From positions 65,563,342 through 65,627,341 of the forward strand of contig CM047426.1 in assembly GCA_026168455.1 (NCBI GenBank): 64,000 bases of DNA, in the 5' to 3' direction. This DNA is from Theocolax elegans. Lineage: Eukaryota; Arthropoda; Insecta; Hymenoptera; Cerocephalidae. Under the pieces are notes generated by a model. It searched no databases, was not told the origin of the DNA, and saw only the letters and a list, made by a program, of their open reading frames with translations. Shown here piece after piece: positions 9,701 to 45,429 of this stretch (positions are counted from its first letter, which is position 1; the number at the start of each line of letters is the position of its first letter). A program made the position numbers and the translations under genes.

Positions 9701-11322
9701 AATTCCCGAAATGTCGGGCAAATTTCGTAATTAGTGGATTATCCCGGAATACCTCACAAATTCCCGAATATCCAGCCAAACCCGTAGTAAGTCGATTAAT
9801 CCCTAAATATTTTAGAAATACCTGAAATGTCCAGGATATCCCGTAATTAAGCCTTAAATAGCGGAGATATCCCGGAATACCTTATAAATTCCCTAATATC
9901 CAGGAAATCCCATCAATACCGGAGATATCTCGGAAGCCCTAAGAAATTCTCAAAATATCCAGCAAATCCCGTAATTAGTGGTATTATTTCGTAACAATTC
10001 AAAAACTCTCGAAATATCCAGCGAATCCCGTAATTAGTGGAATTATCCCGGAATTCCAAAGTAATACACGAAATATCCAGGAAATTCGGTAATTAGTAGT
10101 ACTGTCTCATAATACTAAAAAATTTTCTGCAACGTCAAGGTAATACCGTAATTAGAGAATTCCTCTGAAATTCCCTAATATTTAGGAAGTTCGTAAATTG
10201 CAGAGATATCCCGCAATACCTAAGAATTTCCCGCAATATCCAAGAATTCCCGTAATTAGTGGTATTATCTCGTAAACATTCAAAAATTCTTGAAATATTC
10301 AGGTAATTTTGTAATTAGTGGAAATATCCCGAGAAGTCTCAGATATTCCCGATAAGTTGAGTTATCCCTGAATTCCTAAGAATTTCACGAAATGTCCAGA
10401 AAATCCCGTAAATACTGCAGTTATCGCAGAATACCTCAGAAATTCCTGAATTATCCAAGAAATCCCTCAATTATTGGAGTTACCTCATAGTAATTAAAAA
10501 ATTTCTCAAGTATACAGGTATTACCGTAATTAGTGGAAATATCCCGGAATACCTCAGAAATTCCCGAAATGTCCAGGAAATCCAGTAATTAGTGGAGATG
10601 TTCAGGAATACCTCATTAATTCCCGAAATATCCAGGAAATCCCGTAATTAGTGGTATTATCTTGTAATAATTCAAAAATTCTCGATATATCCATGTAATC
10701 CCGTAATTGGTGGAAATATGTCGGAAAGCCTCAGAGATTCCAGAAAAGTCCAGGAGATCCTGTAATAAAGTTATCCCGGAAGTTCAAAGAAATTCACGAA
10801 ATATCCAGGAAATCTCGTTATTAGGGGAGTTATTCCCAAATACCTCAAAAATCCACGAAATATGCAGGATATACCGTAATACGTGGAGATATCCCGGAAT
10901 ACCACAGAAATTCCGGAATGTCGAAGAATTCCCGTAATAAGTGGTGTTATCCCTGTATTCCTTAGAAATTCGCGTAATTCCAGGAAATGACGTATTTGGT
11001 GGAGTTATCACGGAAGACCTAAGAACCTACCGAATATCCAGGAAACCCCGTATTTAGTGGAGTTATCTTGGAATACTTCAGAAATTCACGAAATATTTAG
11101 AATATCCCCTAATATGTACATACATGAAAATTTCCGATATATCAAGGAAATCCCAAAATTAGTGAAGTTATGCCTGCGTGTCTCGGAAATTACCGAATTA
11201 TTTAGAAAATCCCGTAATTTTTGAAGTTATCCCGAAATACCTCAGAAATTCCCGCAATATCTGGGGAATCCCATAATTAGTGAAGATATCCCGAAATAAC
11301 TCCGAAATTCTCAATACATCAG
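3738..11322. repeat. Satellite array 1, 59-bp monomer (diverged)
   Basis: About 7.6 kb of tandem repeats with a 59-bp period; for example the TCCCGGGATACGT block recurs at 3859 and 3918. Each monomer contains short landmarks in the order TTATCCCGGAATACC, TCAGAAATTCCCGAAAT, TCCAGGAAATCCC and GTAATTAGTGGA. Neighbouring copies differ by many substitutions and small indels, so this array is old. The GTAATTAGTGG segment puts stop codons into the plus frames, and no ORF above 137 codons exists. Larger duplicated blocks are visible (about 5309-5513 with 7030-7243, and about 4746-4886 with 9401-9541). Confidence 0.95.
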
Positions 11323-11579: not shown

Positions 11580-12428
11580 TTCTTCTGTACTTGTTCCTTC
11601 TTCACTATCTTCTTGCTGATTGATGGAGAGCTTGTGCCAAACGTTTGTCTTGGATATATCCGTGTTTAATGGGGTAGACTTAGCTCGAGGCCCTTTTATT
11701 CGTGATTTTGGCGCGAAACAGCTTATTTGTAGTATTATACATTAAGATGTTTCTTTCTTCGATTCTCTTATCCATGAGTGTATTGTTTCGGGAGGTACGG
11801 AAGGTTTTTTCGTATTGTTTTCCATAGGATTTGTAGGTGAATGAGATAATGATACTACTCTTCTCACTATGCTAGTAAAATGTGACCTTTACATCCTTCC
11901 CATTCCTGATCGTTAACGCCATCATTTGAATGTAGCATGATATCTGGTTCATCTTCAGAAACAATCAAATGTTCAGGGTTCATGAGAACGTGTCCATCCA
12001 TAAGTACGAAACTTTCAATACGTTTAAAAATTTTTGAGTTTCTCCTGGTTTCAAATTACTTGGTTTTGTTGTATCTTCTAGATCGTCTTCTTCTTTATCT
12101 GATATGTTCTATGTAACGCAGACCGGCGTATCGTAGACTGCAATATGGGATTTAATATTTCTCCGTCCGCAGATGCAGAGTAGTCTTCATCAATAGATTG
12201 GAAAGCGCATTGAGTCACCGATTCTTCGATTTCATTAGGTGTGACAAGTGTGTGATATTCAGCACGTTTAAGTGTGGTGTTTATCCCTTGTGTTACTTCT
12301 TCAAGCTCACTGTCACTTGCAACTGGCGTATTTTGAGACTGCACCTCTTGTCTTGACTCTAACTTTGTATTACACGGAGAAAAAAGTTCTATAAAAATTA
12401 CGATATTTTTACTGTAAACAAGAGACAA
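11580..12428 (-). pseudogene. Unrecognised decayed protein-coding stretch
   Basis: On the minus strand, coding-like runs follow each other in changing frames: a 116-codon ORF (12428 down to 12078, containing DSELEEVTQGINTTLKRAEY and FQSIDEDYSAS), then an acidic DKEEDDLEDTTKPSNLKPGE run, a MNPEHLIVSEDEPDIMLHSN run near 11990-11930, and about 100 codons with a single stop near 11880-11580 (PMENNTKKPSVPPETIHSW, NTDISKTNVWHKLS). The amino-acid composition (serine, glutamate and lysine rich, hydrophilic) looks like a real protein that has since decayed. No family is recognised, and a transposon or host origin cannot be decided. Confidence 0.35.
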
Positions 12429-12980
12429 ATGGCGGAAACCCGTTCTCAGATTTCCCTGAGTTGGGTGAGGATGAGTGACTCGGCTCCCATTTCCGAGAGT
12501 TCGATTTTTACCTCCTGCGACAGTGGAGGAAGAGGATTGCCACTAGTGCGCCTCGAAGTCGAGTTATTTCGCCGAGCCTGTGTTGGCGATCAACTGTCCA
12601 ACATACGATATGATTGATGCACTAACACGCTTAGTTATTGAACACATGCCATTGGCGTCTATACAATTCATCAGAGCAACCGCGGTCATGGAAGACCTTA
12701 CCCCAGACCGCAACCGCCGAGATGTCTCACAGAGGTGTGTTATCGAATGACGGGAAGCCTTCCAGGCTTTTAAAAGTATTTCTCCCGACGTTACCTTACG
12801 TAGGTTCGATGCACCAAAAACTCGCACAAGAAGGCATTAAGAGCGTCAAGCTTCGAGCCCGATCATGCCGACTACACTATATTCGAAAGTGAGTGAGGTC
12901 GAAAATCCTTTTGGCCGGACTCTTTTATATTGTTCCGGCTCGGTGTGTACCGCGGTGGGAACAGCCTAAAAATGCCTTCG
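12429..12980 (+). pseudogene. Unrecognised decayed ORF
   Basis: A 62-codon ORF from 12429 (MAETRSQISLSWVRMSDSAP) runs into a second frame near 12609 reading MIDALTRLVIEHMPLASIQF and RATAVMEDLTPDRNRRDVS, then two internal stops, then NPFGRTLLYCSGS. The local GC content is higher than in the surroundings. The stretch ends next to the inverted terminus at 13011, so it may be the coding region into which the TTAA-bounded segment inserted. No family is recognised. Confidence 0.3.
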
Positions 12981-13024
12981 AAAATCATTGTTAAGTTCAG
13001 CCTACCTTAAGGGGATGTCGTACC

Positions 13025-13471
13025 CGACAAAAAATTGTTGTGCAGGTCCGCGCTTTCTGTTTTATCGATACCCTATATAAAACAAACTTAACAGAAATCA
13101 TATGTGGCGCCCTCTGTATTATATACTAATACATATTTAGTTGCATGCCCACAGATGGCGCTAACAAGCGTTAACGTAATATAAGATGTAGAACACAATG
13201 CTAGTAAAAGTAATTACAAAATTGATTGTAAAAAAATAAAAATTACTGTAAAAGTAAATGAATAGTATACTGCAAAACTTATAAACGTATCTAATTGGTT
13301 TATCCGATTGGAATGGACTGGAGAAATGGCAAATTATAATTAAAACTTATTTTTATATTATACATGTGTAATATTAATTCTAAAAATTAAAGTAATAGCA
13401 TGTATACAATAACTCTGCACTTTGCGTACACTTTATTTGTACTATATTACTGTATTTGTACTTTATGGTAA
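13025..13471. other. Left interior of the TTAA element, no gene
   Basis: AT-rich sequence with no ORF worth noting. The first bases (ACCCGACAAAAAATTGTTGT) follow the terminal repeat. Nothing further can be supported. Confidence 0.4.
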
Positions 13472-13640
13472 CGTGTACTGTACCTACACTTTATGAATTG
13501 TGTACTGTACGTACACTTTATATGGTACCGTGTACTGTACGTACACTTTATGGTAACGTATACTGTACGTACACTTTATGGTAACGTGTACTGTACGTAC
13601 ACTTTATGATAACGTGTAGTGCACGTACACCTTATGGTAA
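13472..13640. repeat. 28-bp tandem repeat, 6 copies
   Basis: Six consecutive copies of a 28-bp unit built around CGTGTACTGTACGTACACTT and ending in TATGGTAA. Each unit contains the palindrome GTACGTAC within a wider near-palindrome (GTGTACTGTACGTACAC). The first and last copies are the most diverged. One more degenerate half unit lies upstream (about 13427-13471). Confidence 0.9.
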
Positions 13641-14377
13641 CCAAATGTCAGTCGGTATTGTACTTTTCAAATTTTCACTTTGATTTGTATTGCAATTTAA
13701 TTGTAAATTTTGATTTATAATTAATTATAACAAAAGTTACGCATATTCATCTACTAAAATTACAATTTTCTTATCAGTGTTATGTACATTATAATTTTCA
13801 ATAAACTTAAAAAATGATCTATTATTGTATATAATTAAATTTTTAATCCAGTTCAATTTTCATTACCGCCGTTTAACTCATATATTTCGTAGAGTTTTAG
13901 TACCTTTCATTCCTGATAAAAAAACATGTACCATTACTTTAACTTAATAAGATTTTCATAATAATAAACTTTCTGAATGGTACTAGCGTCTGCTTTTTAA
14001 AATTAAGTTTAAATTGTCAAAGTTTTCTAGAACTTACAATATTAATAAAGTAAGTATTTCTGAATAATCTCCATAATTTTATCAACTAATTGGTATGTTT
14101 AAATGAATTTTTTAATCACTACTAAATTAAGCAATGAGCAAAACGGTTATTGGTAAACAACAAGTAAACCTACTTCTATGGAGAACGTTGATGGAGGGAC
14201 ACATGTGATTTTATCTTTATATACAATTTTGATTGTTTCATTAAGTTTATTTATGTTAACTTTTATGCACTATAATTAATGCACATGTAGATTATAAAAT
14301 GGATATTTACTATGATACTGTTGAATAACTAATAATATATAATATATGGTTAATACCTAACCTAATGGAATTAGTAG
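13641..14377. other. AT-rich interval, no gene
   Basis: Very AT-rich, no coding-like frame, no clear repeat. It separates the 28-bp array from the 215-bp array. Confidence 0.4.
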
Positions 14378-14417
14378 GAGGTGCGTGTAATCGTCGAGTC
14401 GAACTGCGCACGCACCT
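14378..14417. repeat. Imperfect palindrome (AGGTGCGTG / CACGCACCT)
   Basis: The arms AGGTGCGTG and CACGCACCT flank a ~20-bp centre that itself contains TCGTCGAGTCGA. The GCACGCACCTCC half recurs at about 16112 and, with one change, at about 20970 in the ~320-bp repeats. This links the palindrome to the same element. Confidence 0.55.
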
Positions 14418-14439
14418 TCTAAAGCAAACGCATCGTACG

Positions 14440-15535
14440 GTGAGTCTTCGCGGTCGTGCGGATATAGCCTCATTTATTGTACAAGGTTTTAAATTTATTT
14501 TATAACAATGTTTTTGTAACTGAATAGAAAACTATTTGTTTTAAAAAAATGAACGTCTTTTTCTCGGCAGGCTTCAGCGGTTATTAAAAACTACTCCCGA
14601 AGAACCTGCGAGTGATAGAGAACACACTCGGCGCGTCGTTCAGATTGTCTCGCCTCGCAGATATCCATCGAGAACTAAAAAGCAAACACATAATATATTA
14701 TAAAAAATTTTATATTTTTTTTATAGCAGTGTTTGTGTAGGTAAACCGAAAATTATTTTTAGTCATATATACACAAAAAATACTTTTTCTCGGGTGGCTG
14801 CTTTTTAGTTCTTGATCGATATCTACGAGGCGAGACAATCTGAACGACGCGCCGAGAGTGTCTCGCCTCGTAGATATCCACCGATATGTTATAAAGAATC
14901 ACATAACATATTGTAACAAATTTTACATTTTTGTTTATAGTTGTGTTTGTGTAGGTAAACCGAAAATTATTTTTAATATTTTATATATACAAAAAATTCT
15001 TTTTCTCGGGTGGCTGCTTTTTAGTTCTGGATGGATATCTACGAGGCGAGACAATCTGGACGACGCGCTGAGAGTGTCTTGCCTCGTAGATATCCACCGA
15101 TATGTTATAAAGAATCACATAACATATTGTAACAAATTTTACATTTTTTTTATAGCTGTGTTTGTGTAGGTAAACCGAAAATTATTTTTAGTATTTTATA
15201 TATACAAAAAATACATTTTCTCGGATGGCTGCTTTTTAGTTTTGGATGGATATCTACGAGGCGAGACAATCTGGACGACGCGCCGAGAGTGTCTCGCCTC
15301 GTAGATATCCGCCGTTATGTTATAAGGAAACACATAATATATTGTAACAAATTTTATATTTTTTTTGTAGCAGTGTTTGTGTAGGTAAACCGAAAATTAT
15401 TTTTAGTCATATATACACAGTAATACTGTTTCTTGGAAGACTTCAGCGATTGATTATTGTCGCGTAGAACCTTCGAGGCGAGACACGCTCGGCGCGTCGC
15501 TGAGATTGTCTCGCCTCGCAGGTACCGTCGAATAG
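14440..15535. repeat. ~215-bp tandem repeat with palindromic junctions
   Basis: The landmark TCTCGCCTCG (TCTTGCCTCG in one copy) occurs at 14648, 14861, 15077, 15292 and 15509, giving a 213-217-bp period and four full units. At the junctions, GGATATCTACGAGGCGAGACA is mirrored about 20 bp later by TGTCTCGCCTCGTAGATATCC, a long perfect or near-perfect inverted repeat around a GC-rich centre (for example 15028-15095). The rest of each unit is AT-rich with a shared GTAGGTAAACCGAAAATTAT segment. The 103-codon ORF at 14858 is only a reading of this repeat. Confidence 0.9.
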
Positions 15536-15789
15536 CTATTAAATTATTACTAATTACTGCTCAATGTTATGGAGTGGTATTGATTTTTATTTCCTTACTA
15601 TCATTTTGTCCTTATTGATATTTTGAAATTTTCGGTTACTATATAGCCAACGTTAAACTATCCGATTTGACATAAAAAAACCAACAAAATACGGTATTTC
15701 AAATAAAAGTGATAAAAGTGGCAGCACATTCTTTTTTAGAACTGACGCATGACGGGGAAACCTTAATTTCCATCCTTTTACCAATATCG

Positions 15790-16195
15790 TAAACTTATAT
15801 ATGTGCACCGCATATCTGAGGACACAGTCCAGTTTTTACAATATTAAATTAAATCGTTGTTGCCTGTTGTCAAAGAGCGGTTATGTTTCAACTCGAATTT
15901 TTCAAATTTAACAATATTTTATCATAAATTCAACTTTTGTACTTGTTATACACTTAAAATGTATATTAAAAATATGCCTCTAATCAGTTTTCTAGCTGCC
16001 ATTGTGTTAAATAATTGGAATTAAACAAATAGTGCACCCAACATTCAGTGTCGACATAGTACAATGTATTTGAAAGTACGAAGTGCTTGCGGCAGACAGA
16101 CCAAATCGGTGCACGCACCTCCTATAGAATCCGTCGCTGTAGACTGAGAGAGGTTATGTTTCAATTCGTATTTTTCAAATTTTAACGATATATAG
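15790..16195. repeat. ~320-bp repeat, copies 1 and 2 (left part)
   Basis: Copy 1 (about 15790-16135) carries TTAAATCGTTGTTGCCTG, GGTTATGTTTCAACTCG, ATAAATTCAACTTTTGTACT, AACATTCAGTGTCGACATAG and GCACGCACCTCCTATAGAAT. Copy 2 starts at about 16136 with GGTTATGTTTCAATTCG and is broken at about 16195 by an inserted retroelement; its remainder resumes at 20783. A third copy lies near the right terminus at about 23290-23575. Confidence 0.75.
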
Positions 16196-16279
16196 TGTGA
16201 CCTGGTATTCGCGGACCCGGTACACTTAATTAATTTATATAATTAATATTAACCGTTAGGCCGCGAATACCACGTCACA
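16196..16279 (+). repeat. 84-bp LTR-like sequence with inverted ends
   Basis: This starts TGTGACCTGGTATTCGCGG and ends CCGCGAATACCACGTCACA, so it has TG..CA ends and 19-bp inverted arms around an AT-rich centre. It lies 2 bp upstream of a tRNA primer-binding site, where a 5' LTR ends in LTR retrotransposons. At 84 bp it is far shorter than usual gypsy LTRs; a miniature (TRIM-like) LTR or a deleted LTR are both possible. No second copy was seen at the right end of the insertion. Confidence 0.45.
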
Positions 16280-16281
16280 AA

Positions 16282-16298
16282 TGGCGACCGTGACAGGA
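16282..16298 (+). promoter_or_regulatory. Primer-binding site, tRNA-Arg type
   Basis: TGGCGACCGTGACAGGA is complementary to the 3' end of insect tRNA-Arg (…TCACGGTCG plus CCA), the primer used by mdg1/412-type gypsy elements. It would prime minus-strand DNA synthesis. The assignment comes from recall of the tRNA-Arg(UCG) 3' sequence. A shorter 13-bp copy of the same motif occurs on the minus strand at 38095-38107. Confidence 0.7.
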
Positions 16299-16389
16299 TG
16301 TTCGGTTTCGTCCTCACCGATGTTAAATTTAAATTTAAGTATAATTGTCGGCCATCTTTTCGCGCGCGAGCAGTGTCGCGGCGAAACGT

Positions 16390-16480
16390 GAGCGGGTTGA
16401 GAGAAAGAGAGAGAGAGAGAGTGAATTGTACGAGTTAGTTAGTGAGAGAGAGATAGAGAGAGAGAGAGCGCGAGAGACGG
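16390..16480 (+). repeat. GA-rich microsatellite
   Basis: Interrupted (GA)n runs (GAGAGAGAGAGAG and related) lie at the start of the leader. Similar GAGAGAG tracts recur at about 16555-16570 and 16840-16857. The overlapping ORFs here (97 and 109 codons) are low complexity and are not treated as genes. Confidence 0.7.
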
Positions 16481-18550
16481 CGTGTGAGACGCGTCTCTAT
16501 ACCGGAGTATTCCCCCTCTTGCTCGGGTATCCGAGGAGAGGCATACACCGGTATATCGAGAGAGAGTTCGCGCGCGACCATGTTCAGCCGGAAGCGCCCG
16601 ATCTCACCGAGATCGGTCTCTCTCGATCGCAAGCTTGACGGGAGATCTTTGCTAGCTTGTATGGGTGTGGCAAAGTAGGGAGAGAGTAGCCTGCGCCGCG
16701 GATCGCGGGCAGCGAGAATCCCCCCCGAATAGCGCAAAGGAAAGACTTCGCAAGAGCCGATCATTACCGAGTGGGAGTGAGAGAGAGAATCCCTAGTCGC
16801 GGGGAATCGGAGTTAGGTGCTGGGCGGGCTATACGGTGTGTGTGAGAGAGAGAGATAGCGCGATCGCCTAGCCCTTTCGCATATTAAGTTTTCGCAGCTG
16901 GTTTCACCGATAGAAACCACTGCGGCGAATTATTTTTATTTTCGTTCTAATAAAATAAATTCGTTCCCGCGCAATATCTATTTTATATTCGATGTGAGAG
17001 TGTTTGAAATAGATTCTTTCGGGAGAGGCAAAAGACAATTTTAAATAATTTAATTTTCTTTTATACGGGACGCGGCGAAACAATTATTGTTGATTTTATT
17101 GTGAGTTCGAGAGCATATTATTTTTATTTGGCTCTCCTCCCCTCCCTGACCCACATATATTGTAATATAGTAATATAATTTAAAATTGAGTTTTATTTAT
17201 TACTAATTATTTATAATATATGTAACATTTTTTGTGTGTGAATAAAATATATTTTGCAACTATTGTTAATTATTTAGACTTGTTTGCAAGTGAAATAATT
17301 AACATTAAGTAACTTTGTGTGAATCAGCCGCGAAGTTACGATAGTTGTAATATTAATTATTTAAACTCGTGTGTGAGTAAAATAATTAAAATTATTTTTG
17401 TATTACAATTGTCTGACAGTGATTACTTAATTTAATATTTGGTATTTATTAAGTATTACTGTTCATGATATTTGTAACATATTTTTCAAAATTTTTGAGT
17501 GTGAGAAAATTTTTTTTTATAACTCGTGATAATTGTTTAGACTTTTTGCAAGTTAAACAATTCATGTTAAGTATCTTTGTGTGATTGTTCCGCAAAGATA
17601 CGAGAGTTATAATATATAATTATTTAGACTCGAGAGTGAGTTAAATAATTAAATTAAAAATTTTTTTTTTGCATGTATTTTAATGATCGGCATTTAACCT
17701 AATATATTGTATTCGTTATTTGCCGTGAAATTTTAATATATGAAAAAAAAATTTTCTTTTCTTTTTGTGTCTTTAAATTATATCTCCACACATTTTTACC
17801 AATTATTTAGACTTGTTTGTTAGTTAAATAATTGGTTATAATTTTTTTTTTGGTGTGTTTGAGTAAAATAATTCGGTGTATAAATTTAATTGTTTAGACT
17901 TGTTGGCAAGCGAAATAATTAAATTTTTCATTTCCTTTTCGTTCAATTTATTTAAAAAAAAAGGAAATATAAATTATTTCAACTTGGTAGCAACATAAAT
18001 TATTTATTTAGTCCTTCTTAGGATAAAATAAATATATTTCGCGGAAAAATTGTCGTTTGGGACGACAATTAGTGAAATAATTATTTTGTTGCAAACCATA
18101 CGGGATTTACAACATTTAGTAAATACCCCTACTGCTTGAAATAATTTAATTAAATTTGTGTTTGTAGTGTAGTGTAAATTATAAAGGAAATTTTTGTTGT
18201 TGTTTTGGGCTTGGAAAAGCAAAATAATAAATAGTGTCTTGGTGTGTGTGAATCACAAGACACTGTATTTATTTTATATTTATTTTAAAATTAATTATTT
18301 AGGCTCGTTAGTGAGATAAATAATTTAATTTTTTTTGTCTTTTCTTCCTTTATAATTTGTTGTTCTGTATTTATTAATAGATTGAAACTTTAATTATTTC
18401 AATTTCCAAAACAAAATAAATTCTTTTCGCCAGTGAGGAATCTTTTGGATTATAACTGGCGAGAGAGATATTTTGGGAAATCGTCAAATTTACCATTACT
18501 TGTAAATTACCGACGATATTGAAATAATTTAAAGATTTTATTTGTTAATA

Positions 18551-18745
18551 ATTATTTTTGCTTGCAGAAGCAATTGTATAGAGTCTTGGTGTGTGTGAGT
18601 CACAAGAAACTATTAAACATTAATTATTAGACTTGTGGAGCAAGTGTAAGTATTTTTGCTTGCAGAAGCAATTGTATAGAGTCTGTGTGTGGTGAGTCCA
18701 AGAAACTATTAAACATTAATTATTTAGACTTGTGAGCAAGTTAAA
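18551..18745 (+). repeat. ~100-bp direct repeat inside the leader
   Basis: TATTTTTGCTTGCAGAAGCA, AATTGTATAGAGTC and CAAGAAACTATTAAACATTA occur twice in tandem (from about 18551 and from about 18653), each followed by the AATTATT(T)AGACTTG hairpin. This shows that the leader has grown by local duplication. Confidence 0.8.
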
Positions 18746-19023
18746 TAATTAATTTTAATTTGGTACAAGTGTTAAGTGTGTGATTTTCCACAACTTTAAC
18801 CAACAAAACTTAATTATTTTGTCCTTCTAAGGACGAAATAAATTTCTTTTAAAGAAAATCTTTTGGATTTTGATCAAGTAAATTAATTTTGTTGGTACAC
18901 TAGTCGGTGCATTTTTACAAATTATTGTAATTAAACCGACACCAAAATTTTTTTTTACTCGTTGGGAGTAATAATTATTTTATTGTGGTGAGTCCAGTAA
19001 AATAATTTCCAATTGAAAATTGG

Positions 19024-19135
19024 ATACTTCCGAAGTATTTGAAACACTAGGGATTTCATCTGAAATCCCGGTTGAGAGTACTTCTCCCGACGTAACACGT
19101 CGTCTGCTGCTGGTCAAAAAAGAATGGCCAGCAGC
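19024..19135 (+). promoter_or_regulatory. Chain of short hairpins just upstream of the ORF start
   Basis: Five consecutive palindromes end 12 bp before the start codon: ATACTTC/GAAGTAT (19024-19038), GGGATTTCA/TGAAATCCC (19050-19069), GAGA/TCTC (19074-19086), CGACGT/ACGTCG (19088-19102) and GCTGCTGGTCA/TGGCCAGCAGC (19106-19135, one G-U pair). Each is separated from the next by only a few bases. This is denser than chance and continues the style of the leader. The role is unknown. Confidence 0.65.
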
Positions 19136-19147
19136 TAAGAAGCCCGA

Positions 19148-20326
19148 ATGGCCCAGCTTATGCGTGAATCACGCATAGCTAGGGACATTCGTCGGGAAAC
19201 GAAGAAGCTTCCGATTGAGGCAGTGTATGCCCAATGGGAGCATCTCAGTTTAAACGCAAATGGCGAAGAGACGGAGTGCCGCGAACGCCTTTTGCGTCAC
19301 CGGATAAGATGTGTAGACATTAATCTGGAAATACCATGGTTCCCTGAATACGATGAGAATGTAAGGGCAGAGCCTGCACATAAACCTCTAGTATGTCAGG
19401 AACTATGGGAAATTAGGAAACCTCGTTCCAGGAAAGGGAGTGTGGTCCTATCAGGAACGGAAGTTTCCTGCGAGTCCGAAATGTCGGATCGCGAAAGGGT
19501 TGCTAGTGACAGAGCACCTATCTCTGAAGAAGATGGAGCTCTGTCACCAAGTGGTCTGTCTAGAAACTCGCCAATGAGTACTGCACAAAGCCCGAGGTTG
19601 GCATCAACAGGTGCTATACCTAAACGGTTTGGTGAGGTACTGGGAGCAAACATGACCACGATTGCAATACCTTATGTTCCTGTTTCGGTGGCTGCAACAT
19701 CATGCACAACCACTACGTCGACGGTTACGACCGTGACGACTGCTCAACTCGGAGGTTTTTATGCACCCGCACATTACCTCCCAATTGAAGAGCAAAGAAA
19801 CAGCGGACATCTTGGCACTAGAGAGAGTGAAGTGCCAACACAACATTTTGACTTGGGTTCACAGGCGGAAGCCGACCGTCGTACGTCACGAGGATACACC
19901 TCCAGACAATACGACAACAGGCAACCAGAGGCTAGCACAACCATACGTGAATTTGTTGATGATAGGAATGGATATGACCTTCCTAATGACGTCAGTGTTC
20001 AATCTTACGAAAAACCGAGGTTTGAACAGAGACGTCGTGAGACCTCTTCTAAGACTTGTGAGGGACAAGATAGAAGAGAGAGGCGTGAGTACACGACTCC
20101 AAACAGAAAGTCACGATACCATCGTTCTGTGAGTAGAGCCTCAAGCAACGATGAACGTCGTGAAAGCTGTACGGAGAGACGTACTCATACACGTCAGTCC
20201 AACCGTAGTACGTCCAACCGTAGTACGTCCAACCGTAGTACGTCCCGATCCGCCGCTCGAGGCGGACAAACTTATCCGGTACCGATCGAGAGAGTGTTTT
20301 TGGCTAATAAGGCGCGTGAGGCGTAA
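19148..20326 (+). CDS. Gag-like protein of the LTR-type insertion
   Basis: An intact 392-codon ORF, the longest non-satellite ORF without damage in the window. Residues ~1-60 (SRIARDIRRETKKLPIEAV, NGEETECRERLLRH) are charged and helical and resemble the SAP-like start seen in some insect gypsy Gag proteins. Residues ~80-150 are acidic and serine rich; ~165-205 are threonine/valine rich (TTTTSTVTTVTT); the C-terminal third is strongly basic with many Arg-Ser and Arg-Arg pairs (NDERRESCTERRTHTRQ, NRSTSNRSTS), suggesting nucleic-acid binding. There is no CCHC zinc knuckle and no pol follows, so the element would be non-autonomous. The start codon was chosen because it is the first ATG after the hairpin chain. 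Assignment as Gag rests on position after a primer site and leader, not on a firm domain match. Confidence 0.5.
   Translation: MAQLMRESRIARDIRRETKKLPIEAVYAQWEHLSLNANGEETECRERLLRHRIRCVDINLEIPWFPEYDENVRAEPAHKPLVCQELWEIRKPRSRKGSVVLSGTEVSCESEMSDRERVASDRAPISEEDGALSPSGLSRNSPMSTAQSPRLASTGAIPKRFGEVLGANMTTIAIPYVPVSVAATSCTTTTSTVTTVTTAQLGGFYAPAHYLPIEEQRNSGHLGTRESEVPTQHFDLGSQAEADRRTSRGYTSRQYDNRQPEASTTIREFVDDRNGYDLPNDVSVQSYEKPRFEQRRRETSSKTCEGQDRRERREYTTPNRKSRYHRSVSRASSNDERRESCTERRTHTRQSNRSTSNRSTSNRSTSRSAARGGQTYPVPIERVFLANKAREA
20198..20242 (+). repeat. 15-bp in-frame repeat, 3 copies
   Basis: TCCAACCGTAGTACG occurs three times in tandem inside the Gag-like ORF and encodes the repeated SNRST pentapeptide. 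Being a multiple of three, it keeps the frame. Confidence 0.95.
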
Positions 20327-20782
20327 ATAAAGCCATCGGTTACCCGGACTATCCTCGTGAGTGAGCCGCGAGTAAATTGGTGTACCCAAAAGAACGGGAG
20401 TGAGTGTGAGAGTGTTAACGCGGTTCGCGAGACACACGCCGTGGCACAAGGCCGCCTTCCACCACCGCAACCGACGTCGCCCCTTCGCGCCATCTAACCC
20501 CGTTGCACCGGCCGCTAAGGTCCCTGTCTCTCCACAGGCACCGAAGCGACCAACGCCACGGGCAGGTCCGAAGGAGTCGAAGAGGCGACGGGTGGAGACG
20601 CCAACCTGCAAGGAGGGTGCTAGGAAGGGCTCGTGCGTGAAGCCTTCCAGCAAACAAACCTTCCTATGCGGAAGTGGCGGTGGGTCGCCGTGTGGAAGAG
20701 GCGACTCGCCGCCAGGCCGCTGCATTTGGCTTGGATTCCACGGGGCCCTTCGAGCAAGTGAAGGCAGCCCTGCGTTCAATAG
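20327..20782 (+). other. GC-rich 3' part of the insertion
   Basis: GC content rises sharply compared with the flanks. A 139-codon ORF (20400-20819) encodes a Pro/Arg/Lys-rich protein with a PKESKRRRVE nuclear-signal-like string, and a 217-codon ORF lies on the opposite strand (20141-20794). Both are expected by chance in GC-rich DNA, so neither is called as a gene. The right edge at about 20782 is where the ~320-bp repeat resumes. No 3' LTR or polypurine tract was found. Confidence 0.35.
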
Positions 20783-21005
20783 CCATAAATTCAACTTTTG
20801 TACTTGTAATTTACTTTAAATCTATACTAAAAATGTACCTCTATCCCGTTTTGTAGCTGTCATTATGTTAAGTAATTCGAATTAAACAAATAATGCACCT
20901 AACATTCAGTGTTGGTACAGTACAATGTATTTGAAAGTACGATGTGCGTGCGGTAAACGGCCCGATCGTGCACGGACCTCCTATAGAATCCGTCGCCTAT
21001 TCCAC
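20783..21005. repeat. ~320-bp repeat, copy 2 (right part)
   Basis: It resumes with ATAAATTCAACTTTTGTACT and runs through AACATTCAGTGTTGGTACAG and ACCTCCTATAGAATCCGTCG in the same order as copy 1. Together with 16136-16195 it makes one unit, showing that 16196-20782 is a later insertion. Confidence 0.75.
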
Positions 21006-21069
21006 CACGAATGAAATAAAACATAGCTGGATGTAGGCACACCCATCAATATATATATATATATATCTA

Positions 21070-22738
21070 TATATATGGGTGGTTCTCTGTAACATCGAAG
21101 ATGAAAAAAATAAATATTGCTATAACTGTGGGAATATGTTTTAGAGGTATCCAGTAGTTCTCCTGAAGTTTTTCAGATTTTTTCTGGGCCATTATTTTAA
21201 GTTACAGAGAGTCAAATTTGACATTTTAGCACTTTTTTGCATTATATGCCCATTTTCATGAATTTTTAGCTCCCAGGGGATGCATTTTTCACTAAAAACA
21301 TAAGTATGACTTTTTTTGTAAAATTTTCCGAACTTTTCATTAAAAATACTTTTAAAGACATAAATGTATGCTGTCACACTCTTGTAAGCCATTTAAACCT
21401 TAAATAGTGAAAATCAGCAATTCTGCTCCGGACTCTGGTAACCAAATACTGTCTAAAAGATGTCTTTTTATAGTCAGAAACTGCCTAAAAAATTCCAGAG
21501 TGGGTCTAAATCATTAAGATCACTTATGGACAAAATATCCGGGAAAAGTGCCCGAAATATTAATAGAAATGTATATTTGTTGCCTTATAACGATGAATCT
21601 AGTAGCATGATCATTGCAAAAAAATTTATGCACTTACCTTGGAATGGTAGAAAAGTATCTCCACTTGTTTCAGTATCCATCTAATCCCCTGTAAGCTGCT
21701 AAAAATTCAAATATTATTATAAAATTATAAAAAATTATTTTTTAAACATTTATAATGCTGGATTTTTAGTTTTACATCCCTTACAAGAATTATAATACTA
21801 ATCTGAAGGATTACTATAAAAGTATCAACATTATTATTATTATTATTCAGCAATACATTGTTTAGATTTCACAAACTTGTTACTGTCAGGTTATCATATT
21901 ATTCATTATAATTATATATCCGATTTATTTATATATCTTTTGTATTAAATACGTATATTCAGTTATTGTAATAATGATGTTTATATATTTATAGTAATCC
22001 TTCAGATTAGTATTATAATTCTTGTAAGGGATGTAAAACTAAAAATTCAGCATTATAAATGTTTAAAAATTAATTTTTTACATTTATATAATAATATTTG
22101 TATTTTTAGCAGCTTACAGGGGAGTAGATGGATACTGAGACAAGTGAAGATACTTTTCTACCACTCCAAGGTAAGTGCACAAATTTTTTTGCAATGATCA
22201 TGCTAATAGATTCATCGTTATAAGGCAACAAATATACATTTCTATTAATATTTCGGGCACTTTTCCCGGATATTTTGACCATAAGTGATCTTAATGATTT
22301 AGACCCACTCTGGAAATTTTTAGGCAGTTTCTAACTATAAAAAGACATCTGTTAGACAGTATTAGGTTACCAGAGTCCGGAGCAGAATTGCTGATTTTCA
22401 CTATTTAAGGTTTAAATGGCTTACAAGTGTGTAACAGCATACAATTATGTCTTTAAAAGTATTTTTAATGAAAAGTTCGGAAAATTTTACAAAAAAAGTC
22501 ATACTTATGTTTTTAGTGAAAAATGCAACCCCTGGGAGCTAAAAATTCATGAAAATGGGCATATAATGCAAAAAAGTGCTAAAATGTCAACTTTGACTCT
22601 CTGTAACTTAAAATAATGGCCCACAAAAAATCTGAAAAAATTCAGGAGAACTACTGGATACCTCTAAAATATATTCCCACAGTTATAGCAATATTTATTT
22701 TTTTCATCTTCGATGTCACAGAGAACCACCCATATATA
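21070..22738. mobile_element. Foldback (long-TIR) element, copy 1
   Basis: The left arm (about 21070-21815) is repeated in reverse complement as the right arm (about 21990-22735) around a ~175-bp AT-rich spacer. The ends read GGGTGGTTCTCTGT and ACAGAGAACCACCC and sit in (AT)n, so TA-rich target sites are likely. The arms are nearly identical and contain a conserved 66-codon ORF on opposite strands (21192-21392 minus, 22416-22616 plus). Each arm also has an exon-like stretch: TTTTTAG acceptor, an ATG reading MDTETSEDTFLPLQ in the right arm, then an AAGGTAAGT donor near 22172. No transposase is present. Confidence 0.8.
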
Positions 22739-22739
22739 T

Positions 22740-23289
22740 GTATGAAGGATCGATGAGGTGAAAGAGATATCGACACTGGAGTTTTATCTGTAACAATTAA
22801 TTTATTCGGATAATTAATATAAAGTGTGTTGCCTTGTCAGTCGTTAACCGTGTTTTGATATTCAAAGCTGCGTCTCTAGTCGAGAGACAAAATGTTACCC
22901 CCACTCCGTATATCTGGAGGGGGAACGCTGAATATCCCTTTAGGAAACGCTTAGCATCGCCACCTACTGGTGGATTTTCAAACTACGTAGCTAAACTTTT
23001 TCTTACTCTTCGGTCTGCTAAATTGCACATTTTTAGAAGGAATGAATATCTTATTTATTTTCCAATAAATTTTTCAATCGATTATGTATTCCTCTAGTTT
23101 TTACTGAAAAATGATTCTAAGATAATGTAAAATGTTGCCTCTACTTTGTTTCTTGATGCTTTTAATTGCAATCTATATTTATTTCCATCACAAATATCTA
23201 GTACCAGCTTCCCAACGTCTTTGTATCAGTCGTATTTTTCAAATTATTTCTTCGTCGTGCACTTTTGACTGTTTTTTTTAGTGTTCCAA
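22740..23289. other. Interval without recognised gene
   Basis: It contains an 87-codon ORF (22834-23097) with no recognised motif; the rest is AT-rich. The sequence near 23225-23280 (GTATTTTTCAAATTATTTCT) has weak similarity to the ~320-bp repeat. Confidence 0.4.
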
Positions 23290-23590
23290 CATTTATCAAT
23301 ATCGTGAAATTGTGCGTCTGCACTGTATTTGTTAGAAATCTTTCCAGTTTTTACAAAATTCAATTAAATCGTTGTTGCCTGTTAACTAAAAGAGGTTATG
23401 TTTGAGATCGTATTTTTCAAATTATAAGCACATTTTAGCACAATTCAAACATTTGTACTTATAATTTATTTAATATATGTATTACAAATATGTCTCCACT
23501 GCGTTTATAGGTTATCATTGTATTAGATAATAGTAATAGGATAAATAGTGCGTGTAATATACAGGTGTCGGCATAGTAGGATTTAATTCA
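23290..23590. repeat. ~320-bp repeat, copy 3 (diverged)
   Basis: It carries CCAGTTTTTACAAAATTC, TTAAATCGTTGTTGCCTG, GAGGTTATGTTTGAGATCG and a TGTCGGCATAGTA block in the same order as copy 1. It abuts the right terminal inverted repeat, so it is subterminal in the TTAA element. Confidence 0.65.
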
Positions 23591-23608
23591 GGTATGGCAT
23601 CCCCTTAA

Positions 23609-24939
23609 GGACTCAACTCAGTCTCTGGCAAGCTAAAGCAGGAGATAAACTGAGGGGAAATTCCTTAGGAATACGTTCCACACGCCTCGAAAGGGGCGAA
23701 ACCAGCAATGTGCAGAAAGTTGTTTCGTGAAAATGGTCCAGGTAACTCGGGTTTACTCGGGTAGATAATAAACTTCCGCCTATCGCCTAGCAAGTGATGG
23801 GTCCACCACCGTGGGTAAAGGGCCTCGGCCGGAGCCATAGCAGCTCCCAAAAGCAAGGAACCTCCGAAGCACAATGTAGGGTTGAACAACCAAATACAGG
23901 TCAATTTCCTTAAGCAAGGGTTAGTAGATTCGCTGAAGGCCCTCGAGAAGAAGTTAAGTCTTTCAATCACTCAGTTAAGAGTTGGGCTCCCTTATGGCAG
24001 CCTCCAGACTATCCTAGCTAAGAACTCAGGTTTTCGCACAATGAGCTTATCACCCACCCGTAAGGGTGAGTTTTCCCATTTTAGGAGATTTTTCGAAAGG
24101 TAGCATAAAAGGATAGCGAGGAGACAGACCAAGAAGTAAGGGTAACTCAAACTGAACCAGTTTAGCACTTGGAAATTTCGAAGCATGGAAGTCGATGGAT
24201 ATTACGTGGACCCTGTGGAGATTCTTGAACGCCAACTAAGGAGAATCTCTATTCCATTGCAGTGTGATCTAAAGCCTGAGTAGTTTGCCAAGGCGAGTCT
24301 CATCAAATAAGATACCACAGAGAGAAATACCCGATTATGACGGTTAAAGGCGGGCAACCATACCTAGCCTGAATCTTGAATATAATAGAACTGCCAAATG
24401 CAGATAAACTCGAGAAGCAATTAATCTTGTAAATAATAGAGATCCGGAGAGCGGCAATCAGCCGTGATCCGGTATCGAAAGCAAGCTTGGCCTAATGCCT
24501 TGTAAATATAAAGATTTCTATGGAGAGTATTCTACTATGATCAAACGATGGAATATGAAATCAAAATGATTATCCATCAGTGCACTATTTGAACCCTCTG
24601 GATATAATCAATCAAACTTAAAAACAAATTCCATTGGGTAATGAAAAGAAATGCACAAAACATGATTCCAGATTCTTTCTCAAAGAGACAAAGTAGGTGT
24701 AATGTGTAAATAGTAGATATAAGATAATATAAGGATTGTAAATATTGTACATAGTAGGAAACGATAAGTTTAGTCTTAAGAAGAAGAATTTCTCCAGCCG
24801 TACGGACCCGGCACTCGCATATTTTCAACTCTACTTTCGATATCTCGTGGGGGATATCTTAGAAATCTTTTTTTGAACGTTTAATTTTAGGAGATAATTG
24901 CACTCGAGTGGACCGCTAACAAGCGCTTACCATTAAAAG
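23609..24939 (+). other. Leader region of the R1-clade element
   Basis: Higher-GC sequence between the TTAA element and the endonuclease ORF. It has no ORF above about 100 codons and no recognised gag or zinc knuckle. Its position and continuity with the downstream ORF suggest a 5' UTR or a decayed ORF1 of the R1-clade element. The palindrome ACCCACCCGTAAGGGTGAGT near 24054 is the only local structure noted. Confidence 0.35.
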
Positions 24940-26019
24940 ATGCCCTCTTCCAATAAGGAACGGCAGCGTCCTCGAAAGCTAAAGGGTGGGTCGACGAAAG
25001 GGCCCTCCAAAGCGGCACGCCTGGACACAAACCCTGTCGATCGAAAAAGTTTAGTTAGGAGTCGGACTCGTACGGACGGGCCTGCAACAGAGTCAAGCTC
25101 TAACAGAGGCCTGAAAGTTAAGATCCTCCAACTAAACATGGCTCGTGCGAGAAACGTCACAGACGAAACTCGCGAACACATGGTCAGAGCAGGAGTAGAT
25201 TTGGCTTTGGTTCAAGAACCATACTCCTTTAGAGGATATATTTCGGGGATTGGACTAAGCATTAGTACGATAGCAGGGACCAAGCCCGAGGAAAAACCCT
25301 CGAAAGCTATTTTATATAGCTCTGGTACCCTTACGTACACACGAATCTCCCAGCTCTGCAGCAGCCACTGCGTATGCTCAATAGTGAGCGGTCGCTTTGG
25401 CAACTTCTATGCGGTCACTTTATACTGCCACTTCAGAGATCCCATAGGGATATATCTGACGCAGCTTAGACTCATTCTATTCGAACTTAAAGACCAAAAG
25501 GTCCTTATAGCAATGGACGCGAATGCTAAGTCTACTTGGTGGGACTCGCCAACGAGAGATAGCAGAGGACAACTACTTGAGGACTTTATTCTCGAACATA
25601 ACCTCATGGTTGTGAACCGGCAAGGGCAGCAGGCCATGTGTGTAAGCGTAAGAGGGGAAAACTTCATAGATATAACACTCGTGACCGGGAGCCTAAGCCA
25701 CCTCATAACCGAATGGAAGGTCGAGGACTGGAGCACGAGTGATCATAGACCTATTTCCATAACATTGGACTTTGAGAGACAACCGACTAGCCAAGTAAAC
25801 ATAATGAAACCGCGTTTCAATATCCGAAAAGCGCACTGGGAAGTCTTCAAAGAGGCTCTAAAAGTCGAAAAGACGCGCCTATCGGACTTGCAGATAGATT
25901 CTAAAGAGGATGTCGACACATACGCCGACAAACTCGAAGAATCAATCAAAAAGAATGAAGAGGCAATTTTCCAAATCTGCTCCATGGTGAAATCCACGGC
26001 TGACACACCTCAAATATAG
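24940..26019 (+). pseudogene. R1-clade ORF2, endonuclease part
   Basis: A 359-codon frame. A basic, Ser/Lys-rich leader of ~55 residues precedes an APE-like endonuclease: VKILQLNMARARN (QLN), LALVQEPYSFRG (QEPY), VLIAMDANAKSTWWDS (DxNAKS, W), FIDITLVTG and WSTSDHRPISI (SDH). All catalytic landmarks of R1/TRAS-type endonucleases are present, so this domain looks complete. The enzyme would nick target DNA for target-primed reverse transcription. The frame is lost near 25995 by a frameshift; the coding sense continues in another frame. Confidence 0.85.
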
Positions 26020-33883: not shown

Positions 33884-34640
33884 GGGCTTCCCTCAACAGG
33901 GAACGCCAGTCGAATCCCATCGTGGAATAGTTAGAACCCTTGAATTGAACGGCCTCGTCTAAACGATGAGAACAGAGGGATCTAACGCTTCACGGAATGC
34001 GGGAAGGAATTTCTCCTGCAAACTGCATTCATTCGAACGTTAGGCCACCTACCGCAAAACCTCCCCGGGGATCCGGGGAGTGATAGGAAGATGTGCTTCG
34101 GCATGTCGACAGTTGGACCAGGATGACTTTACTCTGGTACGCAGGGACTGGGAACCGAGCCCCACGTTGGCGTACCTCTGAGTCAAAGTGAAACGCCAGC
34201 GTGTCCCCAGTATTGGGTTGGACTCTGCGGGGTATGTGGTTGCAAGCAGGCTTGACGGGTGCAGCGTAGTTGACCCGGATGCCGCTTATGTTCGAAAGCG
34301 GATGACGGCGGGGAGCTAAATACCGCCGCATTCCCACCGAGAATTACGACTCTAGGCTAGCCGTCGCAAGGCGGTGGGCCATCGTAAGGAGTTTCGGTAC
34401 ACTGTTCAAGTGGCCTCCGATCGCGGTAAGCCGATCCCAAAGGCGACTCTTGACGACTTTCGTAACTTAAAAAGTTATCGAAATGCCGAATCGAATTCGA
34501 AACGCTTGGGATCATTTAGAACAAAACTACCTGATCCTGAGGGGTTGCCAAAGTCGAATGACGGAGGAACCAGGGCAATCAAATACTGTCAGCTAGACGG
34601 TGCAATGTTGCCCTATGGAAACGCTCTAATACAGTCATAA
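33884..34640 (+). other. 3' UTR of the R1-clade element
   Basis: GC-richer sequence following ORF2, with no recognised protein. The 88-codon ORF at 34374 and the 102-codon minus ORF at 34337 are not supported as genes. The composition drops to AT-rich at about 34640, which is taken as the 3' end. No poly(A) tail is obvious. Confidence 0.5.
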
Positions 34641-35186
34641 AATACATGTTAACAAGAGACAAACGTGGTTCAGTTGAAAAAGTGTAATATTTATTTTGGT
34701 AATAAGTAAACACTTCCAAGAATAATTGCTATTTCAGTTCACTAAAAATCTGGACTCAACAAAATATAAAACAACTGATATTAAATTTTAATGAAAGAAA
34801 CAACAAATTTTACTGCAAGTCTTATGAAATAATATCACAACAGCTACTAAATTTTGTTAGACATTTCAGTAAAATTTGTGTACGGCGAATTTTAGTAGGC
34901 AGGGTAGTACAATTTTAGTGTCCAGTATAGTAAAATTTATTGAAATTTCTACTATTCTCAAACGAAACTGTTAGGTTAGCTGGCTTATTATTCGAATTTG
35001 TACAATTAATTAACGCATTTGACTAATCTAAATCGACAAAATTTTAGCCATTTCAATTACAAACCGACTGGTTTAGCTTTTAGTTAATATTAACTACGGG
35101 ATTATGCAATAAATGTTAATAAAGTTCGCGCATCCTTTGAGCGACGTGTAGCATATAACGACGATTCGAAGTAAAACAATAAAAAG
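34641..35186. other. AT-rich interval, possible MITE
   Basis: It contains ACAAGAGACAAA near 34652. At about 35554-35564 the sequence TTCTCCGTGTA is the complement of TACACGGAGAA near 12373. Near 12418 the same two motifs occur about 45 bp apart, so a DNA element with CACGGAGAAAAA-type ends may span 34650-35565. No gene is present. Confidence 0.25.
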
Positions 35187-35262
35187 GTTGATGGCGCAGG
35201 CGGTAACATGCTCGATTTTGACGCGGAGGGTCCCAGGTTCGAATCCCGGTGTCGGATGGTCC
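35187..35262 (+). repeat. tRNA-derived SINE-like remnant
   Basis: An A box (TGGCGCAGGCGG, 35192-35203) and a B box (GGTTCGAATCC, 35236-35246) are spaced as in tRNA genes, giving an internal RNA polymerase III promoter. The 5' and 3' acceptor halves do not pair and the anticodon arm is imperfect, so this is not a functional tRNA gene. A SINE head or tRNA pseudogene is more likely. Confidence 0.55.
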
Positions 35263-35579
35263 AAAGTTTTTTTCATTAAAATAATTTATTATTCAATTTA
35301 TATTTTAGTTTAAATGTATGTAAATAATAATATATCTGAATAATTCTATGTATGAAATTAAAAAAAAGATGGCACGGGAGCCGTCGAAAAATAAATTTTT
35401 CTTTCTTTTAGTCGCAATAAAAATTACTATATACTGCTTTGTAAAATTTAGTGAACTCGTTCTAAAAATTAGTGAACTCGTTGTAAAAATTCGCGAACTG
35501 CAAGTTTGTCTCGATTTCAAGTAATAATATCGTGATTTTTATATGAAATTTTTTTCTCCGTGTAGATAAGTTCGAAGGT

Positions 35580-36400: not shown

Positions 36401-36517
36401 ATTTCATTCCCTTTTGCAGAAGTTCGTTTAAAGGTTTAGCCTTTAAAGAAAAATTTTTTGTATATTTTCTGTAGTAACTGGCTAATTCAAGGAAATGACA
36501 TTACATTACTTATTGTT

Positions 36518-45350: not shown

Positions 45351-45429
45351 ATATATATATATATATATATATACATACATATGACCTACATAAAGACCTT
45401 ACGAATGAGGTAAAGTGTGGACTTGTTTA

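What the first reader, a model, noticed from the sequence alone, without database searches (positions are those of the whole stretch)
16890..19147. Leader built of tandem RNA-fold modules with compensatory changes
Two modules (17254-17350 and 17517-17612) share one architecture: an outer stem enclosing an ATTxTTTAGAC..-type hairpin and a GTAxCTTTGTGTG..-type hairpin. Stem pairs covary between them: the outer stem goes from C-G to U-A and from A-U to C-G, the second hairpin from A-U to U-A, and the first hairpin from A-U to G-C. A different multibranch module occurs three times (17971-18147, 18389-18533, 18800-18940). Paired changes that keep stems indicate selection on RNA (or cruciform) structure. 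I do not know of a described leader like this in LTR elements.
Basis: partly seen in the sequence, partly recalled or inferred. Interest (0 to 1): 0.88.

Follow-up and report, generated by a model that had tools for sequence, protein, structure and literature searches.

The report
Hairpin-packed, AUG-free retroelement leader RNA
A likely LTR retroelement carries a 2.9-kb leader that is predicted to fold into a nearly unbroken run of repeated hairpins continuing through its gag-like gene, and the last 1.4 kb before the likely gene start contains no AUG at all, so this RNA was likely shaped both to fold and to let ribosomes through, which would matter as an unusually strong case of a mobile-element RNA selected for its fold.

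Summary
The leader 16890-19147 folds far better than 15 dinucleotide shuffles (z -14.6).

Three things were added. (1) The element is a precise insertion, 16196-20778, with a 4-bp target duplication, an 84-bp palindromic LTR-like 5' end and a PBS-like site, but no 3' LTR and no recognised pol. (2) The leader is purged of AUG mainly on the + strand: none in 17743-19123 against 24.4 +/- 4.0 expected, the longest AUG-free stretch of the window. It ends at an AUG that aligns with the start of the only Gag-like homologue. This points to the RNA level and to ribosomes passing through. (3) The structure continues beyond the leader: the gag-like ORF folds far better than synonymous-codon shuffles (z -11.6 and -10.4).

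Most likely this is a retroelement genomic RNA selected for extensive structure, probably for Gag recognition and compaction. That function is inferred. No second copy was found, so covariation rests on duplicates within one copy, and template-switch mutation is not excluded.

The parts
16192..16195 (.). left copy of the 4-bp target-site duplication ATAG
   Evidence: host repeat monomer 16137-16195 resumes in register at 20783; the two halves rebuild a monomer colinear with 15864-16136
16196..16279 (+). 84-bp palindromic LTR-like 5' end (TGTGAC...GTCACA)
   Evidence: starts exactly at the insertion boundary; folds as one hairpin of 31 pairs, mean pair probability 0.91. LTR status inferred: no second copy found in the window
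16282..16298 (+). primer-binding-site-like sequence
   Evidence: directly after the CACA end; match to a tRNA-Arg 3' end is recalled, not computed
16280..16889 (+). first part of the leader, GC-rich, weakly structured (z -2.7), 5 AUGs
16890..19123 (+). structured leader, GC 27%, strongly AUG-depleted
   Evidence: measured on 16890-19147: MFE -599.7 vs shuffles -390.5 +/- 14.3; AUG 8 (one of them the likely gag AUG) vs 43.4 +/- 5.0
17254..17350 (+). module 1: outer stem enclosing one type-A and one type-B hairpin
17517..17612 (+). module 2, paralogue of module 1 with four compensatory pair changes
17268..17300 (+). type-A hairpin 1 (8-bp lower stem, AG/N internal loop, 5-bp upper stem). Other type-A copies: 17355-17387, 17531-17562, 17618-17650, 17801-17833, 17888-17920, 18293-18325, 18718-18750; decayed copy 18621-18654; A-like branches in M1 (18002-18033) and M3 (18812-18843)
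17309..17339 (+). type-B hairpin with GU-rich loop. Others that fold above shuffles: 17572-17600, 18231-18266, 18973-19007
   Evidence: 4 of 10 listed B sites fold better than shuffles, 6 do not
17970..18148 (+). multibranch module M1
   Evidence: z -7.7
18388..18534 (+). multibranch module M2
   Evidence: z -7.7
18799..18940 (+). multibranch module M3
   Evidence: z -6.1
18549..18741 (+). recent 98-nt tandem duplication carrying B and A sequences; the first A copy has lost its lower stem
17743..19123 (+). AUG-free corridor, 1381 nt
   Evidence: 0 AUG vs 24.4 +/- 4.0 expected, minimum 15 in 500 shuffles; next longest distance between AUGs in the window 565 (+) and 504 (-)
19106..19135 (+). GC-rich stem-loop with the likely gag AUG (19124) at the 3' edge of its loop
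19124..19147 (+). likely original gag start, in frame with the ORF; this copy carries an in-frame stop at codon 5
   Evidence: aligns without gap with residue 1 of homologue P0001
19148..20326 (+). gag-like ORF, 392 aa, arginine-rich, no CCHC knuckle; RNA strongly structured
   Evidence: homologue P0001 E 3e-4; CDS MFE z -11.6 and -10.4 vs synonymous shuffles; composition and CCHC check
20327..20778 (+). GC-rich 3' part of the insertion (452 nt), no recognised pol, no 3' LTR
20779..20782 (.). right copy of the target-site duplication ATAG

Best explanation
This is the 5' leader and gag-like gene of a likely LTR retroelement whose RNA is predicted to fold into one continuous chain of hairpins and which lacks AUG for 1.4 kb up to its likely gag start, so the RNA was likely selected to be folded for recognition and compaction by its arginine-rich Gag while still letting ribosomes reach gag. 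Shown by the sequence and calls: the precise insertion, the repeated hairpin cassettes with compensatory changes, the fold excess over shuffles in leader and ORF, and the AUG purge. Inferred: that it is transcribed from the 84-bp LTR-like end, that the leader grew by duplicating two or three hairpin cassettes, and that the hairpins serve genomic-RNA packaging. The AUG purge suggests that the same RNA is the gag mRNA and is traversed by scanning ribosomes rather than skipped.
For: Compensatory changes between modules. In 11 type-A and A-like hairpins 133 of 143 cells pair (shuffled mean 119.9) and 7 of 13 pairs show a two-sided change (shuffled mean 2.6, P 0.0016). Leader z -14.6 and gag ORF z -13.0, against +0.5 to -4.7 in eight other window stretches of 2258 nt, 15 shuffles each. 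In 300-nt windows the median energy excess is 41% for 12 windows covering 16800-20399 and 3.5% for 61 windows elsewhere; five windows at the element's edges (15900, 16200, 16500, 20400, 20700; 5-14%) are in neither group. Gag ORF versus synonymous-codon shuffles z -11.6 and -10.4; the seven other ORFs tested range from -5.7 to +1.0. AUG is the most depleted of the 64 triplets in 16890-19147 (z -6.7), the depletion persists with repeats masked (6 vs 22.5 +/- 3.5), and in the corridor GUG, CUG and UUG are not depleted. A covariance model of the type-A hairpin scores E below 0.1 only inside 17268-19007, though eight of those places are its training rows. Gag-like ORF: 26 Arg in its last 130 residues, no CCHC.
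Against: A single copy, with no relatives found, so covariation is among paralogues. One type-A copy (18621-18654) has lost its lower stem. Six of 10 B sites do not fold above shuffles alone. For 8 type-A rows the tool count is weak on two measures: 2 pairs with a two-sided change (140 of 500 shuffles as high) and further pair types (493 of 500); in the 11-row count the pair-type measure is also not significant (P 0.11). CAT is mildly depleted too (19 vs 28.4, 12 of 500 shuffles as low). Strand asymmetry of the fold is explained by composition. Pairing in the gag ORF is not concentrated at third codon positions (0.67, 0.66, 0.68 against 0.60, 0.59, 0.59 in shuffles). A LINE endonuclease ORF in the window also reaches z -5.7, and 4 of the 61 outside windows reach z -4 or lower. 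Nothing here shows Gag binding. The gag identity rests on one weak homologue; its structure model is confident only at about residues 9-57 and gave no significant match.
Confidence: 0.45

Rival explanations
1. The array is a translation-control leader: it contains an internal ribosome entry or stepwise unwinding device, and the AUG-free corridor is the scanning track to gag.
For: AUG purge is complete in the last 1381 nt before the likely start; start codon with A at -3 and G at +4 at the edge of a hairpin loop; IRES activity in fly LTR-element leaders is recalled.
Against: The structure continues through the coding region, which an entry site does not need; tight hairpins would slow scanning.
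Confidence: 0.22
2. Genome-scale RNA structure serves shielding of the transcript from small-RNA-guided slicing, Dicer or nucleases rather than packaging.
For: Excess structure spans non-coding and coding RNA, as in the genome-scale ordered RNA structure of some RNA viruses, proposed to shield RNA from recognition (PMC9784701 passages).
Against: Internal loops and sequence are conserved between hairpin copies, which points to specific recognition as well; no small-RNA data.
Confidence: 0.15
3. The hairpins arise from mutation, not selection: template switching in reverse transcription or replication copies one arm onto the other and makes compensatory changes.
For: The mechanism is described for RNA genes in DNA replication (PMC8794818, abstract and passages); that a reverse-transcribed element offers more chances is my inference.
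Against: It does not explain the AUG purge, conserved internal loops, or pairing in an open reading frame beyond synonymous shuffles.
Confidence: 0.1
4. DNA-level function: tandem repeats as insulator or enhancer, as known for 5' UTR repeats of insect gypsy elements.
For: Tandem repeats in 5' UTRs of insect elements and an insulator role are reported (PMC3286476 passages).
Against: No excess of Su(Hw)-like sites: 19 in the window against 22.9 expected, one of them in the element (motif recalled, up to 2 mismatches). Compensatory changes and AUG purge are RNA signatures.
Confidence: 0.05
5. Plant-pararetrovirus-like ribosome shunt over the hairpins.
For: Long structured leader with short ORFs in its first part.
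Against: A shunted region needs no AUG purge; described shunt leaders carry several short ORFs and one large stem-loop (PMC5902531 passages; PMC2241666 abstract start in a listing).
Confidence: 0.03

Closest known systems
[quoted passage not shown]
   Same: Excess folding across coding and non-coding RNA against shuffles
   Different: Here in a likely LTR retroelement, with an excess of 28-72% in nine of ten 300-nt windows of 17100-20099 and 21% in the tenth, and with duplicated hairpin cassettes; only about 3.5 kb of one copy can be tested
mdg1 clade of Ty3/gypsy LTR retrotransposons
   Same: 4-bp target duplication and likely tRNA-Arg primer site, as listed for the mosquito mdg1 element cqgypsy_47 (PMC3286476 passages)
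   Different: 84-bp LTR-like end (431-444 bp there), no recognised pol or 3' LTR in this copy, no Pfam match for the gag-like ORF
Insect gypsy-type elements with tandem repeats in the 5' UTR (gypsy, ZAM, Mag-like cqgypsy_24 with about 3 kb of repeats)
   Same: Long, repeat-built 5' UTR
   Different: In the passages I saw, such repeats are discussed as DNA insulators or enhancers; here the repeats are RNA hairpins with compensatory changes and few or no AUGs
Retroviral and Ty1 packaging and dimerisation leaders
   Same: Structured 5' end on an RNA that is both mRNA and genome (PMC4974528 passages)
   Different: An array of several repeated hairpin families over 2.2 kb instead of a few hairpins in a few hundred nt (the latter from general knowledge)

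Membership tests
LTR retrotransposon (mdg1-like Ty3/gypsy) | Target-site duplication of 4 bp at TG...CA ends | tested here: met
   TSD ATAG around 16196-20778, supported by the rebuilt host repeat
LTR retrotransposon (mdg1-like Ty3/gypsy) | Two direct LTRs | tested here: not met
   no second copy of 16196-16279 found in the window by repeat search and blastn; the 3' end of the insertion differs
LTR retrotransposon (mdg1-like Ty3/gypsy) | tRNA-complementary PBS after the 5' LTR | tested here: inconclusive
   sequence sits at the right place; the tRNA-Arg match is recalled only
LTR retrotransposon (mdg1-like Ty3/gypsy) | gag and pol | tested here: inconclusive
   gag-like ORF with one homologue in two of three searches, which is the same protein (none), no Pfam match; only 452 nt follow the ORF, and the two frames tested there have no Pfam match
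Genome-scale ordered RNA structure | Folding energy excess over sequence-order controls in coding and non-coding RNA | tested here: met
Genome-scale ordered RNA structure | Extends over the whole genome | not testable with these tools
   pol and 3' end are missing in this copy
Ribosome-shunt leader (pararetrovirus) | Short ORF ending just before one large stem, leader skipped | tested here: not met
   AUG-free corridor and many small hairpins, not one large stem
IRES | Cap-independent initiation | not testable with these tools
   needs reporter assays; no IRES family among the Rfam matches up to E 1 in 15500-21000
Packaging signal | Gag binding and selective encapsidation | not testable with these tools
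   none available
Su(Hw)-type insulator | Array of Su(Hw) sites | tested here: not met
   (motif recalled)

The most novel reading that the evidence does not exclude
A retroelement has turned its genomic RNA into an rRNA-like folded object: an AUG-free leader built by duplicating hairpin cassettes, joined to a gag gene whose codon choice goes on folding, so that Gag assembles on a repeated array of specific RNA sites while ribosomes pass along the same track.
Probability: 0.3. Interest if true: 0.85.

Novelty: new variant of a known kind. Interest (0 to 1): 0.66.

Why it matters
If other copies confirm it, this would be an LTR-element RNA with selection on folding over leader and gene at a strength usually discussed for RNA viruses. 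Its repeated loops would be ready-made binding sites to test how Gag tells genomic RNA from other RNA, and its AUG-free structured corridor would test how scanning ribosomes cope with dense structure. My searches of the held open-access library listed no described leader of this kind (I saw listings, capped, and passages of a few papers); that library lacks most subscription papers.

Tried and rejected
Cruciform or strand-neutral palindromes: not excluded by folding energy, because the + minus - difference (-94) lies within that of 24 shuffles (-105 +/- 11), and the G-U versus A-C mismatch test gave 7 to 1 against 95 to 55 in 40 shuffles, about P 0.15 by my arithmetic. The AUG purge decided for RNA.

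A short uORF just before gag (19124, 4 codons): first read as a uORF, then dropped, because it is in frame with the ORF and aligns with residue 1 of P0001, so it is more likely the original start with a stop at codon 5.

Upstream repeat 15777-16191 as part of the LTR: rejected, because it is a host repeat that resumes after the insertion.

Known RNA families: the two hits under E 1 in 15500-21000 were far below gathering scores. Relatives in viral contigs and genome contigs: none. Protein searches: the same single homologue in two searches, none in the third. Structure search: nothing significant. GU-rich loops as sites for a GU-binding protein: left as a lead (listing only).

In one search I aligned 11 type-A and A-like hairpins by hand, the decayed copy included; eight rows were used, the decayed copy and the two A-like branches of M1 and M3 left out.

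Full report
What was claimed.

The observation. Both modules fold as stated with z -7.2 and -6.2. On their alignment I counted 53 pairs of the module-1 fold, the following type-A hairpin included: 42 unchanged, 4 changed on both sides and still paired, 3 changed on one side and still paired, 3 broken, 1 gap. When the same substitutions are permuted over columns, double-compensatory pairs average 1.06 (P 0.013) and broken pairs 14.0 (0 of 20000 as low as 3). The three multibranch modules align and fold with z -7.7, -7.7 and -6.1. They share an apical hairpin UUUAC-loop-GUAA on different but complementary basal stems and a UUUGG-containing loop, but M2 lacks the type-A branch and M3 closes differently; taken alone, the M3 copy of the UUUGG hairpin does not fold better than shuffles (140 of 200 as good).

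Hairpin families. A type-A hairpin (8-bp lower stem, AG opposite one base, 5-bp upper stem, short loop) occurs nine times, one copy decayed, and two A-like hairpins sit inside M1 and M3. In all 11 rows, aligned by hand, 133 of 143 cells form standard pairs (shuffled mean 119.9) and 7 of 13 pairs have a two-sided change (shuffled mean 2.6, P 0.0016), while the number of further pair types is not significant (P 0.11); cells other than Watson-Crick were 7 G-U, 1 A-C, 9 other. With eight rows the tool's count is weaker: 97.1% paired (24 of 500 shuffles as high), 4 cells with two-sided change (8 of 500), but 2 pairs with such a change (140 of 500) and 4 further pair types (493 of 500). A covariance model of these eight finds them on the + strand at 49.6-56.1 bits, by construction; every hit with E below 0.1 in the 64-kb window, either strand, lies in 17268-19007, and two chance-level hits (E 1.7 and 2.4) lie outside. 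A looser type B has a GU-rich loop; of 10 sites I listed, 4 fold better than shuffles and 6 do not. One type-A copy in a recent 98-nt duplication has lost its lower stem, so not every copy is kept.

The element. The stretch 16196-20778 interrupts the second monomer of a host repeat in register: the halves 16137-16195 and 20783-20996 rebuild a monomer colinear with 15864-16136, leaving ATAG as a 4-bp target duplication; the insert begins TGTGAC and ends TTCA. It starts with an 84-bp palindrome TGTGAC...GTCACA, followed by TGGCGACCGTGACAGG, which I recall as complementary to a tRNA-Arg end. In a mosquito survey the mdg1 element is listed with Arg primer site and 4-bp duplications (PMC3286476, passages). 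No second LTR was found, and the 452 nt after the ORF gave no Pfam match in the two frames tested, so this copy is incomplete. The ORF 19148-20326 has no Pfam match and one homologue, P0001 (E 3e-4, 29% identity over 33% of the query). The alignment puts residue 1 of P0001 on the in-frame AUG at 19124, which in this copy is followed by an in-frame stop at codon 5. The host was not identified.

AUG purge. In 16890-19147 there are 8 AUGs (one of them the likely gag AUG) against 43.4 +/- 5.0 in dinucleotide shuffles, 0 of 500 as low; CAT, the same triplet on the other strand, is 19 against 28.4 (12 of 500), a milder depletion; four stretches outside the element and its upstream flank (12000-14600, 20800-24900, 33900-36700, 41100-44200) show no comparable AUG depletion (71 of 500 shuffles as low in the lowest of them). 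AUG is the most depleted of 64 triplets at z -6.7, GUU next at -4.7. With repeats masked it is 6 against 22.5 +/- 3.5, 0 of 400. In 17743-19123 there is none, against 24.4 +/- 4.0 (minimum 15 in 500); CAT there is 10 against 16.1 (13 of 500); GUG, CUG and UUG are not depleted; the next longest distances between AUGs in the window are 565 nt on + and 504 on -. The first 610 nt of the leader show only mild depletion (5 against 8.1). This is a translation-related signature, far stronger on the + strand. It suggests that ribosomes pass or enter this region, which speaks against a spliced-out or shunted leader.

Structure beyond the leader. With a 200-nt pairing span and 15 shuffles each, 16890-19147 folds at -599.7 against -390.5 +/- 14.3 (z -14.6). 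The ORF 19148-20326 gives -437.8 against -323.0 +/- 8.8 (z -13.0), 16280-16889 gives z -2.7, and eight other stretches of 2258 nt give z +0.5 to -4.7. Shuffling synonymous codons, which keeps the protein and codon usage, gives z -11.6 (60 shuffles) and -10.4 (30 shuffles); seven other ORFs of the window give -5.7, -2.8, -3.2, -1.4, -3.1, +0.9 and +1.0. Pairing in the gag ORF rises at all three codon positions alike (0.67, 0.66, 0.68 against 0.60, 0.59, 0.59), not at third positions in particular. In 300-nt windows the median excess is 41% in 12 windows covering 16800-20399 and 3.5% in 61 windows elsewhere, of which 4 also reach z -4 or lower (13500, 14700, 25200, 43200); five edge windows (15900, 16200, 16500, 20400, 20700; 5-14%) are in neither group. 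The structured unit is thus most of the leader plus the gag-like ORF.

Mechanism. The facts ask for one RNA that is folded throughout, built in its leader from repeated hairpins, and read by ribosomes. The most economical reading is a genomic RNA selected for compaction and for recognition by its own Gag, whose C-terminal part is arginine-rich (26 Arg in the last 130 residues, no CCHC), with AUG removed because the same RNA is the gag mRNA. Packaging is inferred. Translation control, shielding from small-RNA pathways, and template-switch mutation remain as rivals; the last is a published mechanism for compensatory changes (PMC8794818, abstract and passages) but does not explain the AUG purge or the coding-region result.

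Limits. One copy; no relatives in the collections searched; the genome search did not complete (9 calls). The strand cannot be read from folding energy. Selection is inferred from duplicates within one sequence and from order-shuffling controls, not from a phylogeny.

Novelty. Ten searches of the held library were made. In their listings and the passages I read there are 5' UTR tandem repeats in insect elements discussed as DNA elements, a structured Ty1 leader, and genome-scale RNA structure in RNA viruses, but no leader of this kind. I rate it a new variant of a known kind.

Noticed in passing
16196-20778: Precise TG...CA insertion with a 4-bp target duplication but no 3' LTR found: a 3'-truncated retroelement that still looks integrase-inserted.
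   Followed up: partly
16196-16279: The LTR-like end is only 84 bp and is almost entirely one palindrome; very short for an LTR that must hold a promoter.
   Followed up: partly
17234-17241, 17369-17376, 18244-18251, 18591-18598, 18776-18783: Motif GUGUGUGA recurs (5 in the leader, 2 on the + strand elsewhere in the window) and resembles GU-rich sites studied for TDP-43 (paper listing only).
   Followed up: no
20141-20794, minus strand, and 20376-20816, plus strand: Long open frames overlap the end of the gag-like ORF and the GC-rich tail; no Pfam match for either.
   Followed up: partly
21069-22739 and 44305-45376: Inverted repeat with 771-nt arms, 96% complementary, with related copies near 44.3-45.4 kb: a foldback-type element next to the insertion.
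   Followed up: no
24940-26019: LINE endonuclease ORF whose RNA also folds better than synonymous shuffles (z -5.7), the second strongest of eight ORFs tested.
   Followed up: no
3816-11310 and 51403-63994: Large arrays of a diverged 59-bp satellite unit.
   Followed up: no
14610-15550: Tandem 215-bp units that also contain inverted repeats; the window at 14700 folds at z -6.9.
   Followed up: no
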